DNA of 64,000 nt, from contig NZ_RSED01000013.1 in NCBI RefSeq assembly GCF_003933735.1, positions 62,001-126,000 of the forward strand. The letters are read 5' to 3'. Numbering within the stretch: the first letter of the stretch is position 1; each line of letters opens with the position of its first letter. This DNA comes from Aquabacterium soli. Its GTDB lineage: Bacteria; Pseudomonadota; Gammaproteobacteria; Burkholderiales; Burkholderiaceae_C. A model generated the notes under the pieces. It saw only the letters and a program-made list of their open reading frames with translations. It had not been told where the DNA came from and searched no databases. The position numbers and the translations under genes were made by a program. This document shows positions 33,974 to 47,850 of the stretch, in pieces.

Positions 33974-34753
33974 ATGACCGCCCAACCCATCGAGTACCCC
34001 GTCACCCTGACCAACAAGGACTGGCAGAAGAAGAAGGGCCTGCTGGCCAAGGGAGCCGGCGAGACGGGGGTCGGCGAACACATGGACAAGCTGCAGGCCG
34101 AGTTCAAGAAGATCAACTGGGCGGCCTTCAACGCCAAGCTGCTCTGTGACCGCGCCAACGGCGTCTTCACCCCGGGCCAGGCCGCCGCCAAGCTGAAGGA
34201 GGCCGGCGCAGCCTTCGTCAAGGACGTGGCCCCGGCACGCGCTGCCGCACAAAAGCTGCGTGACGTGGCCCAGAAGACCGCCGACGAGTGGAAGAAGAAC
34301 AAGCTGATCCCGTCCTCGTCGCAGAAGCATGCGGCGCTGGTGGCGCAAGAAGCCGACATGCTCTTCATGGGCCTGAAGGACAACGGCGCCTTCATGACCG
34401 AGGTGATCAAGGACTTCACCGACGAAAAAACGCGCCTGCAGCGCAACGTGGACCTGGCCATCAAGGGCTTGACGGGCAATTTCGTCGACCTGCAGAAGTA
34501 TGCCAAGGAGGTGCTGGCCACCCCCACCGTGGCCAGCTACCGTGGCGACGCCACCAAGGGCTTCCACCAGAAGGTGCGCGGCACGGCTGCGGCCCTCAAG
34601 GCCCTGAGCGACCACGAGGCCTACAAGAAGGCCGAGCCCACCTGGAAGACCTACGCTTCCGATGGCTTCCCGCCCAAGGAAGACGGCCAGGTCAAGGCCA
34701 AGGTGATGACCGTGCTCAAGAGCCTGCAGGAGCTCATGGCCATCAAGGTCTGA
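33974..34753 (+). CDS. Unrecognised helical cytoplasmic protein
   Basis: 259 residues, no signal peptide or membrane segment, rich in Lys, Ala and Glu/Asp and predicted by eye to be almost entirely helical. Contains one cysteine (LLCDRANGV) and several amphipathic stretches (AARAAAQKLRDVAQKTADEW; EKTRLQRNVDLAIKGLTGNF; VKAKVMTVLKSLQELM). Coiled-coil or helical-bundle folding is likely. I do not recognise a family and suggest no function. First of four consecutive rightward genes of unknown function (33974-38713). Confidence 0.8.
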   Translation: MTAQPIEYPVTLTNKDWQKKKGLLAKGAGETGVGEHMDKLQAEFKKINWAAFNAKLLCDRANGVFTPGQAAAKLKEAGAAFVKDVAPARAAAQKLRDVAQKTADEWKKNKLIPSSSQKHAALVAQEADMLFMGLKDNGAFMTEVIKDFTDEKTRLQRNVDLAIKGLTGNFVDLQKYAKEVLATPTVASYRGDATKGFHQKVRGTAAALKALSDHEAYKKAEPTWKTYASDGFPPKEDGQVKAKVMTVLKSLQELMAIKV

Positions 34754-34866
34754 TCTTCCGGTGCGGCCTGGGGTTGTTCTGGTCAACCTCCGCGAGGCCG
34801 TGGGCGTTGTGACAGAGTAGGTTTCTGCTGCGGCATCCGCCGCGGCGTCAACTTTTTCTCGACACC

Positions 34867-35361
34867 ATGCGCTCATCCCGCTTCCTTGCCGCTGGCGTGC
34901 TGCTGTGTGCTGGCGCTGCGATGGCACAGGCCACGGCATCGACATCGACATCGACATCGACATCGACATCGACATCGGCTGAACCATCCGCCTTCTTCAC
35001 GGAGGCGGCCGACTGCTCCGCGGCCTACAAGGCCGGCGTCACAGCACGCCTCAAGCAGCCCAAGACCGAGGTGCGTGACAAGGCCATCCTGGAAGACACC
35101 GAACGCAGCTTCGTCTTCATCGGCGTGGCCTACAAGCAGGGGCTGCGCAAGCCCGAAGCCGACCGCCTGCTGGCGCAGTCGGAGCAGCGCTGGGCCAGGC
35201 TGCCCAAGGCAGAGCAGGCCCGGCGTGTGGATGCGTGTACCAAGCGGGCGGAAAAGCTGATGGACGAGGTCAGCTTCATCGAGCGCTATGCCGTGCAGAA
35301 CCGCGCCAAAGCCCGTGTTGAGCAGCAGTTCGAAAAAGAGAAGAAGCAGCAGGCCCAGTAG
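34867..35361 (+). CDS. Exported hypothetical protein with Ser-Thr repeat
   Basis: 164 residues. Signal peptide (RFLAAGVLLCAGAAMAQ) followed directly by alternating Ser-Thr (about residues 24-37) encoded by a hexanucleotide repeat at 34937-34978, then a helical charged domain with two cysteines (ADCSAAYKAG; VDACTKRAEKLM) and a Lys/Gln/Glu-rich C-terminal helix. Probably periplasmic, with the repeat as a flexible spacer next to the cleavage site. No family recognised. No clear Shine-Dalgarno. Confidence 0.78.
   Translation: MRSSRFLAAGVLLCAGAAMAQATASTSTSTSTSTSTSAEPSAFFTEAADCSAAYKAGVTARLKQPKTEVRDKAILEDTERSFVFIGVAYKQGLRKPEADRLLAQSEQRWARLPKAEQARRVDACTKRAEKLMDEVSFIERYAVQNRAKARVEQQFEKEKKQQAQ
34937..34978 (+). 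repeat. Hexanucleotide tandem repeat (CATCGA)
   Basis: Six perfect CATCGA units (34937-34972) plus one CATCGG, inside a coding sequence. The unit keeps the frame, so copy-number change would lengthen or shorten a Ser-Thr spacer rather than switch the gene off. Confidence 0.95.
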
Positions 35362-35462
35362 GTCAATCCCACAGCCTAGGTGCGTGTCTGTGGTCCGGTG
35401 GGATCGGGTGGGCTCTACCATCCGGACGGTGCATTGCCGCACGTTCACCCAACCACAAAGCC

Positions 35463-37127
35463 ATGGCGCCTGCTTCGCCCGACACGACCGGCGCCCCGCC
35501 GGCGGAGGTCAGTACCGGTCTGCTGACCGTGCCCATGCTGGAGGCCACACCGGCCTGCTTGCGCGTCACCCAGATCGGCTGGTTCAGCGGCCTGCGCGGC
35601 AGTGGCTTGCGTGTGGGCGACCGCATCGTGGCGGTCGATGGTGAGCCGGTCAACGCCCAGGCCACGCCTGCCGAGATGCAGCAGGCCATCGGCACCTACA
35701 GCGAAGCCCTGCGCTGGGCCAAGGCCGGTGCGCATGATGGCACCCCCGTCACGCTGACAGTGATGCGGCGGGCCACACCAGGCCAAGGCTGGCAGACGCT
35801 GGACGTGACCGGCGCATTGCGCCCCAGGCCCAACGTGCGCACCGCCGACAACCGCATCCTGCTGGGCCCGGGCGGCCCCCCGGAGATGTACGAGAACGAT
35901 GGCTTCGACCGCGGCTGGGGCCCCTGGGCCGAAGCCTTTGCCAAGTCGGCCAGCGCGGTGCTGGACGACCCGCTCTACGCGCTGTCGCTCACCTCATCTT
36001 ACGAGTTGGGCAACCTGTTGGCACAGGAACCTCGTGTGCGGCTGCTGGCGCAAAAGTACCCCAGCCCTTTTGCCGATGCGGTGCAGCAGGATTTCGAGGC
36101 CATGCGCGAGCGCCTTCAGGGCCCGGCCATCACGCTGCCCGAAGGCGCCATGGACTACCGTGCGCAAGGCGAGCAGCGTGCCGACGAGATCCGCCAGCAG
36201 GCCCAGGCCGCGTGGACGGCACTGCGGGCCGAACTGGCCGACCGCAGCATCACGCCCCTGTTCCCGGCGGAGCACCCCATCCACGGCCGGCGCGACGCCG
36301 TGGTGGGCCGCTACGCCACCTTGCCGCCGCTGCGCAACCGCGACTGGGTGGGGGAGGCCGGGCGCACCTGGTTCGTGGCCGGCAACCCGCGTGAAGGCTG
36401 GTATTTTGCCGATGCAGAAAGCGATCAGGCGGTGTGGATGATGGACGCCCTGGCCCGCTACCGCCGCCTGGTGGTGCCCAGCATCGACGAGCGCTACGAG
36501 CTGGTCGGCCAGGTTGATGCACAGCCCGGGCAGTTGGTGGTGGGCGAGCGCGCGCATTTCGGCCTGCGCCTGACACCCGTGGCCGCCTTGATCGGCGGTG
36601 CCATGTTCGTCGACCTGCGCAAGGCGGTGGACGGCGTGGCCCGCTTTGCCGGTGAAGACGCCTTGCGTGATCAGGGCGGGGCCGCGCCCCCCGACACCGC
36701 CAGCCCGACCGAGGTGCTGGAGGCCATGGTGCGCGCGCTCAAGGCCGCCGACCAGGACCTGTGGATCTCGCTGTTCGCCACCTGGGCGGTGGGCGCCTTG
36801 CCCGATGGCCGCCCGCAGTTCAAGGCCAACGCCGTGGAGCAGCCCGCACGCTATTTCGAAGAGGCGCGGCGCCGCATCATGGAGCGCGTGCATGACCTGA
36901 GGCCCGTGTGGGTGGACGATGTCCGCGTCATCTTTCCGGGCGATGCCTATCCGGGCCAGTTGCGGCTGGAGGAAGTCAAGGTGGAGATGCAGCACATCGG
37001 CCTGTTCGATGGTGTCTACCGGCCTTTCAGCGATGTCACCGTGAACCGCTGGTGGACGTTGCAGCGCATCGGCCTGCCGGGCCAGCCGCTTGGCCCCTGG
37101 CGCGTCACCAGCCTGCAAGCCATCTGA
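35463..37127 (+). CDS. Unrecognised protein with N-terminal PDZ-like domain
   Basis: 554 residues without an evident signal peptide. The first ~110 residues look PDZ-like: LRVTQIGWFSGLRGSGLRVG, DRIVAVDGEPVN, then a PVTLTVMRR beta strand. The remaining ~440 residues match nothing I know: a helical section (about 150-260), a Trp/Gly-rich part (WVGEAGRTWFVAGNPREGWY), a mixed region with ALIGGAMFVDLRKAV and a C-terminal segment rich in Trp/Val (VNRWWTLQRIGLPGQ). The following gene begins 17 nt after its stop behind a strong Shine-Dalgarno, so the two probably form an operon and act together. Confidence 0.82.
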   Translation: MAPASPDTTGAPPAEVSTGLLTVPMLEATPACLRVTQIGWFSGLRGSGLRVGDRIVAVDGEPVNAQATPAEMQQAIGTYSEALRWAKAGAHDGTPVTLTVMRRATPGQGWQTLDVTGALRPRPNVRTADNRILLGPGGPPEMYENDGFDRGWGPWAEAFAKSASAVLDDPLYALSLTSSYELGNLLAQEPRVRLLAQKYPSPFADAVQQDFEAMRERLQGPAITLPEGAMDYRAQGEQRADEIRQQAQAAWTALRAELADRSITPLFPAEHPIHGRRDAVVGRYATLPPLRNRDWVGEAGRTWFVAGNPREGWYFADAESDQAVWMMDALARYRRLVVPSIDERYELVGQVDAQPGQLVVGERAHFGLRLTPVAALIGGAMFVDLRKAVDGVARFAGEDALRDQGGAAPPDTASPTEVLEAMVRALKAADQDLWISLFATWAVGALPDGRPQFKANAVEQPARYFEEARRRIMERVHDLRPVWVDDVRVIFPGDAYPGQLRLEEVKVEMQHIGLFDGVYRPFSDVTVNRWWTLQRIGLPGQPLGPWRVTSLQAI

Positions 37128-37144
37128 CCTGCCAGGGAGACACC

Positions 37145-38713
37145 ATGCCATCCTTCGACGGCCGCCGACGCGAACTGCGCGAATCGCTCGCCGCCATCCA
37201 GTCGCAACTGGGTGCCAGCGAATCCATGCGCCTGGCAGGCGTGCTGGAGGACTACCTCACCGCCCGTGATGGTGCGCTCACGATGATGCAGACCTTCATC
37301 GCCGACGACAGCACCGAGTTCCTGGCCGATGAATACACCGGCAAGTTCCGCGACATGACACGCGCCGCCACCGACAAGCTCGACGCCATGCTCGACGGCC
37401 TGTCGGAACCCAGTGACCTGGCCGTGCACTGGAGCGAGCAGGCGAGCTTCGGCGAGTTCGTCTTCTGGGCCCACCTGGGCAGGCTCAACCTGGCCGAGGC
37501 GCGCGACAGGATGGTCAACGACGGCAAGCTCGTGCGCGAGCTCATCGGCGTGCTCGACAAGAAATGGCAGAACCTCAGCGAGGAAGACCAGAAGGTGGAG
37601 GATGCCGAGCAGCGCGCCGCGCAGGATCTGAAAGACCTGCTGGAGCGCTCGCTGGCCGAGGCCATGCCCTGCTGGCTGCAGGCCGGCACCGGCGTGGTGG
37701 CGCTGCGCGAAACCTGGAAAAGCTTCTTCGCCTCGATCACCGACCATGCCAAGGAAACACTGGTCGGCGCCGGCGTGCCGCGCAACGTGGTCGAAGGCCT
37801 GATGAAGATCGCCTCTTGGGCCAACAACGTGGCCGACATCACCCAGCTGGGCGTGGACCTGGGCCTGCCGTTCAGCGAGATCATGGACTGGATCAACCGC
37901 ATCCGTTCGATGAACCTGGGCGGGCTGATCCAGTACCGCGCCACCACGGTGCTGGACAAGGACACCAAACTGGTGACCGGCTATCTGGGAGATCTGTGCA
38001 AGGGCTTGAGCCCGCTCATCCAGGGCGCCTACGACTCGCGCATGGCCGCCTTCAAGGCCCAGCTCGACAACGAGGGCGTGATCATCGTGTCCTTCGGCGG
38101 CATCCGCGACCAGGTCGACAAGTTCCTCGATGTCTGCAACCTAGAGGGCATGCGCGCCGTGCACAGTGCCGCGCTGTCCGCGATGGACGGCATCGAGTCC
38201 TCGCTGGCCACCGATGGCATGAAGCGGGATTGGTCAGATTTGCGCCGCAGCCTGAAGGATGCCTTCGATGCCCGCCGCGCTGGCACTGAAAAGGCCTTCG
38301 ACGACTTCTACCGTGCCTACGACGGCCGCTTCCTGGGCGGCCTCAACAGCGAGACGGAGCAGGCCCTGCTGGAGCCCAACAAGTGGATCGTGACCACCGA
38401 GGGCATCATCCGCGTGGGCATGGACGTGAAGCTGCGCGAATGGCGCCAGGGCATCACCGTGATCAACGGCGGCCCCAAGGAGGCGTTCGACCAGGTCCAG
38501 AACGCCTTCCTGGGCCTGCCACTGGACATCCGAGATCAGTTCCAGAAGGGCTGCAACGAGCTGCTGCTCAAGCACGTGGGCGAGATCAACACCGAGGCCG
38601 ACAAGACCATCGCTGTGCTGGACAAGTGCGAGCTGATGGTCAACGCCCGCAAGATCAGCGACGACATGGACCGCGCCCGCCTGGCGCAGGCCTTGCGCGC
38701 CACCATACGCTGA
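37145..38713 (+). CDS. Unrecognised large helical protein
   Basis: 522 residues from ATG 37145, fixed by AGGGAGA; longer frames overlap the upstream gene. No signal peptide. Almost wholly helical by eye, with heptad-like charged stretches at both ends (EEDQKVEDAEQRAAQDLKDL; NTEADKTIAVLDKCELMV) and a less polar middle (about 175-290: ADITQLGVDLGLPFSEIMDW). Paired by position with the PDZ-like gene. The arrangement of long helices flanking a more hydrophobic centre is compatible with a membrane-interacting or scaffold protein, but that is only a guess from composition. Confidence 0.82.
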   Translation: MPSFDGRRRELRESLAAIQSQLGASESMRLAGVLEDYLTARDGALTMMQTFIADDSTEFLADEYTGKFRDMTRAATDKLDAMLDGLSEPSDLAVHWSEQASFGEFVFWAHLGRLNLAEARDRMVNDGKLVRELIGVLDKKWQNLSEEDQKVEDAEQRAAQDLKDLLERSLAEAMPCWLQAGTGVVALRETWKSFFASITDHAKETLVGAGVPRNVVEGLMKIASWANNVADITQLGVDLGLPFSEIMDWINRIRSMNLGGLIQYRATTVLDKDTKLVTGYLGDLCKGLSPLIQGAYDSRMAAFKAQLDNEGVIIVSFGGIRDQVDKFLDVCNLEGMRAVHSAALSAMDGIESSLATDGMKRDWSDLRRSLKDAFDARRAGTEKAFDDFYRAYDGRFLGGLNSETEQALLEPNKWIVTTEGIIRVGMDVKLREWRQGITVINGGPKEAFDQVQNAFLGLPLDIRDQFQKGCNELLLKHVGEINTEADKTIAVLDKCELMVNARKISDDMDRARLAQALRATIR

Positions 38714-41877: not shown

Positions 41878-44800
41878 TTAAGCGGGCACCCCTTGCGGCC
41901 GTACCGTGCGGTTGAGCACGCCCTTGAGTGCCACGCCGGTGTGCGTGCCGGCCTTGACCAGTGTTTCCGGTGTGCCTGCTGCGGCCACGCGGCCACCGCC
42001 TGTGCCACCCTCGGGCCCCATGTCGATCACCCAGTCTGCCTCGGCGATCACGTCCAGGTCGTGCTCGATCACGATCACGCTGTGGCCGCCGCCCACCAGC
42101 CGGTGCAGCACGTGGATCAGCTTCTCCACATCGGCCAGGTGCAGGCCCACCGTGGGTTCGTCCAGCACGTACAGCGTGTGCGGTGCCTTCTGGCCGCGGC
42201 GCGTGATGTCGTCGCGCACCTTGCTGAGCTCGGTTACCAGCTTGATGCGCTGCGCTTCGCCGCCCGACAGTGTGGGTGAGGGCTGGCCCAAGGTCAGGTA
42301 GCCCAGGCCCACGTCCTGCAGCAGCTTCAGCGGGTGCGCGATGGAGGGCATGGTCGCGAAGAACTCGACGGCCTCGTCCACCTCCATCTTGAGCACGTCG
42401 CCGATGTGCTTGCCGCGCCATGTGGCAGTGAGCGTCTCGGCGTTGAAGCGCATGCCGTTGCAGGTGTCGCAGTGCACCTTCACGTCGGGCAGGAAGGCCA
42501 TCTCGATGGTGCGCACGCCCTGGCCTTCGCACTCGGGGCAGCGGCCCTCGCCGGTGTTGAAGCTGAAGCGGCCCGGACCCCAGCCGCGTGCACGCGCTTC
42601 GAGCGTGTCGGCGAAGAGCTTGCGGATGGTGTCCCAGAAGCCGATGTAGGTGGCGGGGCAGGAGCGGGGCGTCTTGCCGATGGGCGTCTGGTCGACCTCG
42701 AGCACGCGGTCGACCGCGCCCCAGCCCTCGACGCCATCGCAGCCCACCCACAGCGGCGTGGTCTTGCCACGCTCCTTGGGCGGGATGGCAACGGCGCTTT
42801 GCACGTTGGCCAGCAACACGTCGCGGGCCAGGGTCGATTTGCCCGAGCCCGACACACCCGTCACCGCGACCAGGCGGTGCAGCGGCACCTGCACGGTCAC
42901 CTTGTCCAGGTTGTGCAGGCGCGCACCGTTGACCGTCAGGCGTGGGGTGTCGGCGGCCAGCGGGCGCCGCTCGGCCAGCGGGTGCGCGATGGGGTTGCGA
43001 AGGCAGCGCCCGGTGACGGAATCGGGCGCGGCCATGATGTCCTGCACCGTGCCCTGCGCCACGACGGTGCCGCCCCGTTGTCCGGCGCCCGGACCGATGT
43101 CGATGATGTGCTCGGCGCGGCGGATGGTGTCCTCATCGTGCTCGACCACCACCAGGGTGTTGCCCTCCTTGCCCAGCGTGTGCAGGGCATCGAGCAGCAG
43201 CTGGTTGTCGCGCGGGTGCAGGCCAATGGTGGGTTCATCCAGCACATAGCACACACCCTGCAGGTTCGAGCCCAGCTGCGCCGACAGGCGGATGCGCTGT
43301 GCCTCGCCGCCCGACAGGGTGGGCGCGGCGCGGTCCAGGCTGAGGTAGCCCAGGCCCACCTGCTCCATGAAGCTCAGCCGTGACTTGATCTCGCTGACGA
43401 TGTCGCGCGCGATGGTGGCTTCGCGGCCATCGAGCTTGAGCTGCTCACCCCAGCGGCGCGCATCTCGCACGGCCAGTGCCGACAGCTCGGCGATGTTCTG
43501 GCCACGGCCCGGGCCCAGCAGGCGCACGGCCAGGGCGGTGGGGTTCAGGCGGGCACCGTGGCAGGTGCTGCACGCGGTGTCTTCCAGATCCTCGACCTCG
43601 GCTTCGGCGAAGGTCTGCTCGCGGCCCTTGTTGGCGTCCTTCTCATCGGGCTGCGAATCGTCCAGCGTCTTGCGCTGGTCGCGTGTGAGCTCCAGGCCCG
43701 TGCCCACGCAATCGGGGCACCAGCCGTGCTTGCTGTTGTAGCTGAACAGGCGTGGGTCCAGCTCGGGGAAGCTGGTGCCGCAGCTGGGGCAGGAGCGCTC
43801 GGTGGAGAACACCTTCACGCGGCCGATGTGCAGCGTGGACAGGCCCTGCTCCAGCGCGTGGGCCAGGCCGTCCAGCGGCGTGAGGATGTGCACCACGCCC
43901 TTGCCGTGCTCCAGCGCGGTGGTCAGCAGTTCGCGCAGGCGGCCTTCGTTCTCGGGGCTGACCAGCACGTCGCCCACGGGCAGCTCGATGGTGTGCTCGC
44001 GGTAGCGGTCCAGCTTGGCGCCGCCGGCCTGGCCCCAGCCGGCCACGGGCAGGAACTCGCCATCCACGCGCAGGTGCGTGAAGCCGCGCTGGCCGGCCCA
44101 CTTGGCCAGCTCGGTGTAGATGCCCTTGCGGTTGACTACCAGCGGCGCCAGCAGGCCGATGTGCTGGTCGCGGAAGTCACGCATCCACTGTGCCACGATG
44201 GCCTCTGGCGTCTGTGGCAGCACGGGGATGTGGTGGCCTTCGCCATCGACGCAATGCGGGCAGTGCTGCACGCCCAGCTTCACGTACAGCAGCCGCAGGA
44301 AGTGGTGCACCTCGGTGGTGGTGCCCACCGTGCTCTTGCGTCCGCCACGCGACAGGCGCTGCTCGATGGCCACGGTCGGCGGGATGCCGTAGACGGCATC
44401 GACCTCAGGCCGGCCCGCGGGCTGCACCAGGCTGCGAGCGTAGGCGTTGAGCGATTCAAGATAACGGCGTTGGCCCTCGTTGAAGAGGATGTCGAAGGCC
44501 AGCGTCGATTTGCCCGAGCCCGACACGCCGGTGACCACGTTGAACTTGCCGCGCGGGATGTGCACGCTCAGGCCCTTGAGGTTGTTCTCATGGGCGTTGA
44601 CGACCTCGATGGCATCGTGGCCCGGGGCCTGGTTGGCCAGCTCACGGCGGCGCTCGCGGCGTGCCTTGATCAGCGACTGCAGGGACGAGCCCTGGTCTTG
44701 CGGATCGGTCGACGTGTCCTTCAAGGCGTAGCTGGCCGTGCGCTCGGCGGCCTTGAGCAAGGCACCTCCAGGTTCGTGCAGGCCCAGCGCATCTTCATAT

Positions 44801-47800
44801 TCGCGCAGCGCCACACCAGTGGCCGTTTGCCCCAAACGCACCTGCTCGGGCGCGCCGAAGGCCACCAGCTGGCCACCTTCGTCGCCCCCTTCGGGGCCCA
44901 GTTCGATCAGCCAGTCGCACGAGCGGATCACATCCAGGTTGTGCTCGATCAGCACGATGGAATGTCCGGCATCAAGCAGCCGTGCAAAGGCCCGCATCAG
45001 CTTGGCGATGTCGTCGAAGTGCAGGCCGGTGGTCGGCTCGTCGAACATGAAGAGCGTGCCCTTGCGCGCCACCTTCTGCCCGGTCTTGCTGGCCTGCTGA
45101 GCGGTTTCCACCAGATGGCCCGCCAGCTTCAGGCGTTGCGCCTCCCCGCCCGACAGCGTCGGCACGGGCTGGCCCAGCTTCACATAGTCCAGGCCCACGT
45201 CGGCCAGCGGTTGCAGCGCGCGCACCACGTCCACGTCCTGGCCGAACAGGCGCACGGCCTCGGCCACGGTCAGCTCCAGCACATCGGAAATGCTGAGCTT
45301 GCGGCTCAGGCGTTCGATGGTGACCTCGCGCACCTCGGCGCGGAAGCGTGTGCCGTCGCAATCCGGGCAGCGCAGGTACACGTCGGACAGGAACTGCATC
45401 TCCACGTGCTCGAAGCCCGAGCCGCCGCAGGTGGGGCAGCGCCCGTTGCCCGCGTTGAAGCTGAAGGTGCCGGCGGTGTACTTGCGCTCGCGCGCCAGCG
45501 GCGTCACCGCGAACAGCGTGCGCACTGCATCAAAAGCGCCCACGTAGCTGGCCGGGTTGGAGCGGGCGGTCTTGCCGATGGGTGATTGGTCGACGAAGTT
45601 GACGGCGCTCAGCCAGTCGGCGCCCAGCAGCTCGTCGTGCTCGCCGGGGCTGTCGGTGGCCTGGCCGAAGTGGCGCAGCAGGGCCGGGTGCAGGATGTCC
45701 TGCACCAGCGTAGATTTGCCCGAGCCGCTCACGCCGGTGATGCCTACCAGGCGCTGCAGCGGGATCTCGATGTCGAGGTCCTTGAGGTTGTGCTCGCGCG
45801 CGCCCTGCAGCAGCAGCTTGGGCGTGCCCTCTTCGACCTTGCGGCGCGTGCCCATGCTGATGGTGCGGCGCGCGCCCAGGTAGGCGCCGGTCAGTGTCTC
45901 GGCCTGTTTCAGGTCTTCAGGCGTGCCGTCGAACACGATGCGTCCACCCTGATGGCCGGGGCCCGGGCCCAGGTCGATCACGCGGTCGGCCGCCAGCATC
46001 ACCGCGGGGTCGTGCTCGACCACCACCAGCGTGTTGCCGGCATCGACCAGGCGCTGCATGGCCACGTTGATGCGGTCCATGTCGCGCGGGTGCAGGCCGA
46101 TGCTGGGCTCGTCCAGCACGAACAGGGTGTTGACAAGGGATGTGCCCAGGGCCGTGGTCAGGTTGATGCGCTGCACCTCGCCGCCCGAGAGGGTGCGGCT
46201 CTGCCGGTCCAGCGTCAGATAGCCCAGGCCCACATCGACCAGGTACTTCAGGCGCGTGCGGATTTCATCCAGCAGCAGTTGCAGGGCCTCGTCGTGCACC
46301 TGGCTGGGCAGGGTCACAAAGGCGAAGAAGCGCTGCAGCTGCTTGAGTGGCAGCAGCATCACATCGTGCAGGTTCAGGCCGGGCAAGGCTTCGAGCACCT
46401 CGCGGGGCAGGGCTGCGCCCTTGGGGGCCATGCGGCGCTGCGGCGCCAGCACGGCATCGGCGTCTTCGCGGCTGCCCAGGCGCCACAGCAGCGATTCGAT
46501 CTGCAGGCGCGCGCCATCACACACCGGGCAGGTCGTGTAGCTGCGGTACTTGGACAGCAGCACGCGGATGTGCATCTTGTAGGCCTTGCTCTCGAGGTAC
46601 TCGAAGAAGCGCTTGATGCCGTACCACTGCTTGTTCCAGTTGCCCTTCCAGGCCGGGTCGCCATCGATCACCCAGGCCTTGTGCTCGGGACTGAGCTGGT
46701 TCCAGGCCGTGTCGCGGGGCACGCCGGCATCGCCTGCGTACTTGAGCAGGTCGGCCTGGCTCTCGGCCCAGGCGGGTGTCTGCATGGGCTTGACCGCGCC
46801 CGAGCGCAGCGTCTTGCGCCCATCGGGGATCACCAGGCCCCAGTCGACGCCGATCACGCGGCCGAAGCCACGGCAGTGCGGGCATGCGCCTGCCGCCGAG
46901 TTAAACGAGAACAGGCCGGGCGTGGGCGTGCTGTAGCGGCGGTGGCTGTCGGGGCAATGCAGCCCGCTGGAGAAGCGCCACAGCTCGGGCGCCGGCTCGC
47001 CGCCATCGGGCAGGGTGTCGCCGGATTCAGGCAGCGCATACACAGTGATGTGGCCGCCGCCGCGCTTGAAGGCCACTTCCAGGGCCTCCATCACACGGGG
47101 GCGGTCCAGGTCGGCACCTGTGGGGTCGGCACCGATGCGGAAGCGGTCGGCCACCACGTCGAGCACCAGGCGCTCGTTGGCCAGCAGCTCATCTGCGCTG
47201 GCCTTGGTTTTCTTGGCCGCCTTCTTCGCGGCTGGTTGGGCCTTGCCCTCATCGGCCGAAGACAATGCTGGCGACACGGCGCTTGCCACCACCACGCGCT
47301 GCGCCTGGATGCGCGAGAACCCACTGGCCGACAGCCATTCCTGCATCTGTTCTGGCGTGGTGTTGGCCGGCAACTCGGCAGCAAAGGTGATCACGACGCG
47401 GCGTCCGCCTGGCGTGGCGGCCCCGCGCCGCACCAGCTCGTCGAACACAGATTGCGGCGTGTCCTCTCGCACTTCCAGGCCCGTGTCCTGGTCGAACAGC
47501 CTGGCGCCGCGTGCGAACAGCAGCTTCAGGTGGTCGTTCAGCTCGGTCATCGTGCCTACCGTGGAGCGCGAGGTGCGCACCGGGTTGCTCTGGTCGATGG
47601 CGATGGCCGGAGGCACGCCGTCCACGCGGTCCACGGCCGGGCGGTCCATGCGGTCCAGGAACTGGCGCGCGTAGGCGCTGAAGGTCTCCACGTAGCGGCG
47701 CTGGCCCTCAGCGTAGAGCGTGTCGAACACCAGGGACGACTTGCCCGAGCCGCTGGGCCCGGTCACCACGGTGAGTTCACCCGTGCGGATGTCGAGGTCG

Positions 47801-47850
47801 AGGTTCTTGAGGTTGTGCTGACGGGCACCGCGGATGCGGATATCGGACAT
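41878..47850 (-). CDS. Double-length UvrA paralogue with four ATPase domains
   Basis: 1,990 residues, twice the length of normal UvrA (~940). Two complete UvrA units in tandem: Walker A motifs at about 31 (GPSGSGKSS), 703, 1104 and 1661 (GVSGSGKST), four LSGGE signatures and zinc modules of both units (CPHC/CPVC, CPTC/CPDC, CPSC-CPDC/CSTC, CPEC/CDTC). The join is near residue 1050-1080. Unit 1 has an insertion with a Lys/Ala-rich stretch ([11 protein letters not shown], about 210) near the UvrB-binding region. AAGG precedes the ATG. This fused form is known in Burkholderiales alongside ordinary UvrA; its repair role is undefined. It probably is not needed for UvrBC repair because the canonical gene is also present. 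Confidence 0.93.

What the first reader, a model, noticed from the sequence alone, without database searches (positions are those of the whole stretch)
33974..38713. Four consecutive unrecognised genes, one with a PDZ-like domain
Between msrPQ and an AEC transporter lie four rightward genes with no recognised family: a helical cytoplasmic protein (259 aa), an exported protein with a Ser-Thr repeat (164 aa), a 554-aa protein with a PDZ-like N-terminus and an otherwise unknown body, and a 522-aa helical protein. The last two are separated by 17 nt behind a strong Shine-Dalgarno. Codon use looks like the host, so this is not obviously foreign. This is the most probable undescribed system in the window.
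Basis: partly seen in the sequence, partly recalled or inferred. Interest (0 to 1): 0.68.

Follow-up and report, generated by a model that had tools for sequence, protein, structure and literature searches.

The report
Rare paired genes, PDZ and helical
Two neighbouring genes of unknown family, one with a PDZ domain and one for a long helical protein, are found together in a few Aquabacterium-type bacteria and probably form one small accessory unit, perhaps tied to a bacterial injection machine, but what they do is unproven.

Summary
The four genes are real, have host-like codon use and match no Pfam or NCBIfam family above its cut-off (no convincing PADLOC or PHROGs match either). They are not one four-gene system. 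orf2 (exported) occurs on its own in the genus (19 of 42 genomes). orf1 (259 aa) is absent from the locus of the nearest relative and belongs to a small scattered helical family (two own-genome paralogues, Azospirillum megaplasmids). orf3+orf4 (554 and 522 aa) are a module: intact copies were found only together (the same 3 of 42 genomes), same order, 13-19 nt apart, in two different gene neighbourhoods; under purifying selection; decayed to a remnant in a fourth genome. No other relative of the pair was found in the genome, phage, plasmid and viral sets searched. orf3 begins with a PDZ domain, may end in an NTF2/SnoaL-like domain, and shows no signal peptide. Best reading: a cytosolic adaptor (orf3) plus a faster-diverging helical partner (orf4), carried as cargo between msrPQ and an AEC transporter. 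A type VI secretion link is suggested (the same 4 of 42 genomes share one T6SS variant) but not shown. Structure prediction failed (pLDDT 35-38).

The parts
33974..34753 (+). orf1, 259 aa, predicted helical protein of a small family with N-terminal motif DWxKKKGxxAK; neighbour, not part of the core module
   Evidence: family: own-genome paralogues, Azospirillum megaplasmids 32% over 97% of the query, G211 N-terminal 34-35%; absent from the L002 locus
34826..34847 (+). terminator-like hairpin between orf1 and orf2
   Evidence: consensus match only; 8 sites found against a shuffle mean of 3.2
34867..35361 (+). orf2, 164 aa, N-terminal hydrophobic (signal-like) segment; independent accessory gene
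   Evidence: hydropathy peak 1.69 at residue 6; 19 of 42 genus genomes
34937..34977 (+). hexamer repeat (6.8 copies) coding the Ser-Thr run in orf2
35463..37127 (+). orf3, 554 aa: PDZ-type domain (about residues 41-103), unknown middle (about 126-404), possible NTF2/SnoaL-like C-terminus (about 405-554)
   Evidence: PDZ; DUF4440 E=0.018, SnoaL_2 E=0.11, below cut-off; dN/dS 0.062/0.467 against L002
37133..37139 (+). Shine-Dalgarno-like purine run (CAGGGAG) in the 17-nt orf3-orf4 spacer; purine-rich SD also in the 19-nt and 13-nt spacers of G201 and G211
37145..38713 (+). orf4, 522 aa, predicted helical protein, no clear transmembrane segment, partner gene of orf3
   Evidence: (low-confidence model); dN/dS 0.058/0.422 against L002; adjacency in G201 and G211

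Best explanation
orf3 and orf4 form a two-gene operonic module. Both products are most likely cytosolic. orf3 would be an adaptor or chaperone: its PDZ domain and its NTF2-like end bind partners, one of them the orf4 protein. orf4 would be a long helical cargo or effector that diverges faster than orf3. The module is carried as cargo (here inserted at the msrPQ/AEC junction) in genomes that also have a particular type VI secretion (T6SS) variant, and may work with it. Shown: pairing, order, tight spacing, purifying selection, PDZ domain, two different gene neighbourhoods, decay in one genome. Inferred: physical complex, cytosolic location, NTF2 fold. Speculative: T6SS role.
For: Intact orf3 and orf4 in the same 3 of 42 genus genomes and adjacent in each. 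G211 carries the pair (45% and 23% identity) in another neighbourhood: downstream are a phosphatidylethanolamine-binding protein gene and an RHS-repeat gene with a DUF6531 domain, not AEC. dN/dS about 0.13 (orf3) and 0.14 (orf4). In 17 of 30 msrQ loci examined AEC follows msrQ within 30-115 nt, so the genes sit in an insertion spot. PDZ. orf4 diverged more (23%) than orf3 (45%), MsrQ (58%), TssM and TssL (about 71-72%) between the same lineages. A fused VipA/VipB sheath-like gene is shared by exactly the 4 genomes with orf4 or its remnant: G000, G201, G236 (92-96%), G211 (62%); chance 1 in 111,930 if genomes were independent, which they are not. An orf1-family paralogue in the same genome lies next to a Tlde1-domain gene.
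Against: No test of physical interaction. Both AlphaFold models are worthless (pLDDT 38.1 and 35.5). G000, G201 and G236 are close relatives, so the T6SS association rests on two lineages. 39 of 42 genomes have a T6SS gene, so T6SS as such does not discriminate. In the window and its near relatives the pair is not beside T6SS genes; the T6SS is on another contig of the own genome. No known T6SS adaptor or effector domain in orf3 or orf4. The orf4 C-terminus differs between lineages (TIR and AGA ends), so it is not an obvious conserved PDZ ligand. orf1 and orf4 profiles show no relation, so the orf1 clue does not transfer to orf4.
Confidence: 0.35

Rival explanations
1. A lineage-specific cytoplasmic two-protein complex for stress or housekeeping work, unrelated to secretion or conflict; co-occurrence with the T6SS variant is shared ancestry.
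For: No signal peptide evident and no transmembrane peaks; strong purifying selection; host-like codon use; no toxin, immunity or defence family; three of the four T6SS-sharing genomes are close relatives.
Against: Narrow and patchy distribution (3 of 42), decay in G236, a different neighbourhood in G211 and the very high divergence of orf4 fit dispensable cargo better.
Confidence: 0.35
2. A toxin-immunity or defence pair: orf4 toxic, orf3 neutralising it or sensing a trigger.
For: Two-gene operon, narrow distribution, fast divergence of orf4, loss in a relative, insertion spot.
Against: orf3 is 554 aa with a PDZ domain, large for an immunity protein; no PADLOC match to orf3 and only a weak partial one to orf4 (PtuB1, E 0.048); no catalytic family seen; no phage, plasmid or viral relative. 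The G236 remnant keeps pieces of both genes, so it does not tell which went first.
Confidence: 0.15
3. orf4 is an alpha-helical pore-forming protein (long tail helices, hydrophobic middle).
For: Predicted layout of long helices at both ends and shorter ones in the middle, from a low-confidence model.
Against: Highest 19-residue hydropathy is 1.03 (window) and 1.26 (G211), low for membrane insertion; no related sequence among solved structures (6 weak hits, E 0.42-0.49, to TRAP solute-binding proteins).
Confidence: 0.05
4. All four genes form one operon and system.
For: Same strand and consecutive; G211 has relatives of orf1, orf3 and orf4.
Against: orf1 missing from L002; orf2 distributed independently; gaps of 113 and 101 nt and a hairpin between orf1 and orf2; G211's orf1 relative is the N-terminus of a protein of more than 1000 aa on another contig and G211 has no orf2 match.
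Confidence: 0.05

Closest known systems
PDZ domains of S41 (Ctp), M50 (RseP) and trypsin-like (HtrA) proteases
   Same: The N-terminal domain of orf3 matches their PDZ domains
   Different: No protease domain in orf3; no signal peptide or membrane anchor evident, so probably cytosolic, unlike these mostly envelope proteins (general knowledge)
NTF2/SnoaL-like domains (Pfam DUF4440, SnoaL_2)
   Same: The C-terminal 150 aa resemble them weakly (E 0.018 and 0.11)
   Different: Below the gathering scores; no match in the G211 copy at E 5; no related solved structure found
T6SS effector-adaptor cassettes (DUF4123, Eag/DUF1795, DUF2169; recalled)
   Same: Two-gene cargo with a presumed adaptor and a variable partner; co-occurrence with one T6SS variant
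   Different: No adaptor or effector domain detected; not encoded beside VgrG, Hcp or PAAR genes in the loci seen
Tlde1 effector locus in the own genome (PF10908)
   Same: Lies beside an orf1-family paralogue
   Different: Concerns the orf1 family, not orf3/orf4

Membership tests
PDZ domain superfamily (orf3 N-terminus) | Significant profile match to PDZ | tested here: met
   Single sequence: PDZ_6 E=1e-4, below the cut-off. Profile: all 6 non-self hits of 399 genomes are PDZ-bearing proteases; weak matches to solved PDZ domains of Scribble (E 0.006) and RseP (0.055)
PDZ domain superfamily (orf3 N-terminus) | Complete fold with carboxylate-binding groove | tested here: inconclusive
   AlphaFold model of pLDDT 35.5 is unusable
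NTF2/SnoaL-like | Profile match above cut-off | tested here: not met
   DUF4440 15.9 bits against a cut-off of 25.2; SnoaL_2 13.5 against 27
Known T6SS effector or adaptor families | Recognised adaptor, effector or toxin domain in orf3 or orf4 | tested here: not met
Known T6SS effector or adaptor families | Encoded next to VgrG, Hcp or PAAR genes | tested here: not met
   Neighbours are msrPQ/AEC (window, L002) or PBP and RHS genes (L006); PAAR was not searched for specifically
Known T6SS effector or adaptor families | T6SS-dependent export | not testable with these tools
   needs a secretion assay
Known anti-phage defence systems | PADLOC model match | tested here: not met
   none for orf3; orf4 only PtuB1 at E 0.048, partial; orf2 only RT_UG4 at E 0.003, partial

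The most novel reading that the evidence does not exclude
orf3/orf4 are the first example of a T6SS cargo module in which a cytosolic PDZ plus NTF2-like adaptor presents a long helical effector, specific to a T6SS variant with a fused VipA/VipB sheath-like subunit.
Probability: 0.12. Interest if true: 0.65.

Novelty: new variant of a known kind. Interest (0 to 1): 0.35.

Why it matters
If the adaptor-cargo reading holds, it would add a PDZ-based recognition step to bacterial cargo loading. As it stands it is a clean, testable orphan pair: conserved operon, no family, two lineages. It also shows that the msrPQ/AEC junction of this genus is a variable insertion spot.

Tried and rejected
Four-gene system: rejected. 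orf4 as a pore-former: no hydrophobic hairpin. A class-level orf4 profile hit (G1312, E 0.0018) is glutamyl-tRNA reductase, a false hit. orf1 and orf4 as relatives: profile comparison negative (probability 0.15%). AlphaFold models of orf3 and orf4 (two jobs, window plus one close homologue each) were too poor to use, so no fold search was run. Solved-structure searches with profiles of orf3, its middle, its C-terminus, orf4 and orf1 gave only PDZ matches and noise. Phages, plasmids and viral contigs: no relative of orf3 or orf4 (searches used the G211 copies against plasmids). The scan of genome contigs with orf4 found only L002; it uses exact peptide patterns and reaches close relatives only, so it says little about distant ones. 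Eleftheria: its sheath has the same fused VipA/VipB layout, but the own-genome 607-aa protein gave no tblastn hit in that locus at E 1e-4, so they are not close relatives. Literature: four word searches. 'Aquabacterium' with 'type VI secretion' gave 6 listings, none relevant by title; PDZ, T6SS, effector and immunity terms gave 2 listings; PDZ, NTF2-like and T6SS gave 0; Tlde1 with DUF2778 gave 1. Listings and abstract starts only were seen; no paper was opened.

Full report
What is there. The window lies in an assembly of 5.4 Mb in 117 contigs. The genus holds 42 genomes in the searched set. The four ORFs are as described, and no family reaches a curated cut-off; PADLOC and PHROGs gave only weak partial matches.

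Distribution. orf4 matches 4 of 42 genus genomes: own, G201 (90%), G211 (21-23%) and a C-terminal piece in G236 (76%). orf3 matches 3 of 42: own, G201 (89%), G211 (45%). orf2 matches 19 of 42. orf1 as a single sequence matches 2 of 42. Outside the genus: orf4 in 200 family genomes, own only (the sample includes three genomes of the genus itself); orf4 profile in 369 class genomes, own plus one false hit; orf3 profile in 399 order genomes, own plus 6 PDZ-only proteases. These are samples drawn from larger groups, not all genomes. Phages, plasmids and viral contigs gave none for orf3 or orf4.

The pair. In the window, G201 and G211 orf3 is followed by orf4 after 17, 19 and 13 nt with a purine-rich Shine-Dalgarno in each. 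In G211 the pair starts 261 nt from a contig end; downstream are a phosphatidylethanolamine-binding protein gene on the other strand and an RHS-repeat/DUF6531 gene of more than 2500 aa running off the contig. Purifying selection against L002: dN/dS about 0.13 for orf3, 0.14 for orf4, 0.23 for orf2 (NG86). In G236 (53% complete) the place between orf2 and AEC holds only a 38-bp stretch of the PDZ region and the last part of orf4. Two separate losses make decay likelier than an assembly error, but the draft quality leaves doubt.

The place. In 30 msrQ loci examined (of 40 genomes with an msrQ match), the AEC gene follows within 30-115 nt in 17; at 654, 934 (G236), 1144 and 1160 nt in four; and was not seen within the available flank in nine, among them the own genome, G201 and one whose contig ends after 457 nt. 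One of the 1.1-kb inserts examined by family search is a nitronate monooxygenase gene. The junction is therefore variable, and orf1-orf4 are insertions there.

Domains. The N-terminal domain of orf3 is PDZ. Its last 150 aa resemble the SnoaL/NTF2 group weakly. The middle is unknown. orf4 is predicted helical with no hydropathy peak above 1.03. The conserved LQ[AS]I end of orf3 more likely belongs to a terminal strand than to a PDZ ligand (inference).

orf1. A profile finds two paralogues in the own genome. One lies convergent with a small gene and a Tlde1-domain gene, a known T6SS effector type (role of Tlde1 recalled). Azospirillum megaplasmids carry full-length relatives (7 records). The long G211 version shares a middle domain with an Eleftheria terrae plasmid protein encoded downstream of T6SS genes and upstream of R-body genes. 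This hints that the orf1 family is linked to T6SS cargo; it is not proof, and the Azospirillum neighbourhoods read show no T6SS genes by inspection.

T6SS co-occurrence. PF05591 hits 39 of 42 genomes. A second, weaker hit in long frames (318-679 aa) occurs only in G000, G201, G211 and G236. In the own genome it is a 607-aa protein with both VipA and VipB matches, near IcmF and DotU genes. Its relatives are 92-96% (G236, G201) and 62% (G211) identical. Five other genomes have a second hit in 465-481-aa frames; the three of these examined are about 29-31% identical, a different gene; two (G214, G230) were not examined. The four carriers are exactly the four with orf4 or its remnant. Three are close relatives, so this counts as two lineages, and a G211-like divergence could hide the gene from PF05591 in other genomes.

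Verdict. A real, rare, conserved two-gene module of unknown family, most likely adaptor plus helical partner; T6SS involvement is plausible but unproven. The other two genes are neighbours, not members.

Noticed in passing
window 41878-47850 (-): A single ORF of 1990 aa that reads as a tandem-duplicated UvrA-like protein (by sight).
   Followed up: no
window 34937-34977: Hexamer repeat array (6.8 copies) in orf2; the Ser-Thr run it codes is not seen in the G236 copy.
   Followed up: partly
L079:8405-10064: Own-genome orf1 paralogue convergent with an 82-aa hydrophobic protein and a Tlde1-domain (PF10908) gene: looks like a T6SS effector with a possible immunity gene, plus an unknown helical neighbour.
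   Followed up: partly
L091:17060-18883 (-): 607-aa protein with VipA and VipB matches in one chain, beside IcmF and DotU genes; shared by 4 of 42 genus genomes at 62% identity or more. Eleftheria terrae has a 592-aa protein of the same layout.
   Followed up: partly
L073:14683-28412: Eleftheria terrae plasmid: T6SS genes, unknown helical proteins and six RebB R-body genes in a row.
   Followed up: no
L007:992-1354: Remnant reading frame joining a PDZ scrap of orf3 to the end of orf4 in G236.
   Followed up: yes
L097:5573-6580 and L099:4380-7882: Lys-rich, apparently helical proteins of unknown family encoded beside T6SS genes in two other genus members; no profile match to orf1, orf3 or orf4.
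   Followed up: partly
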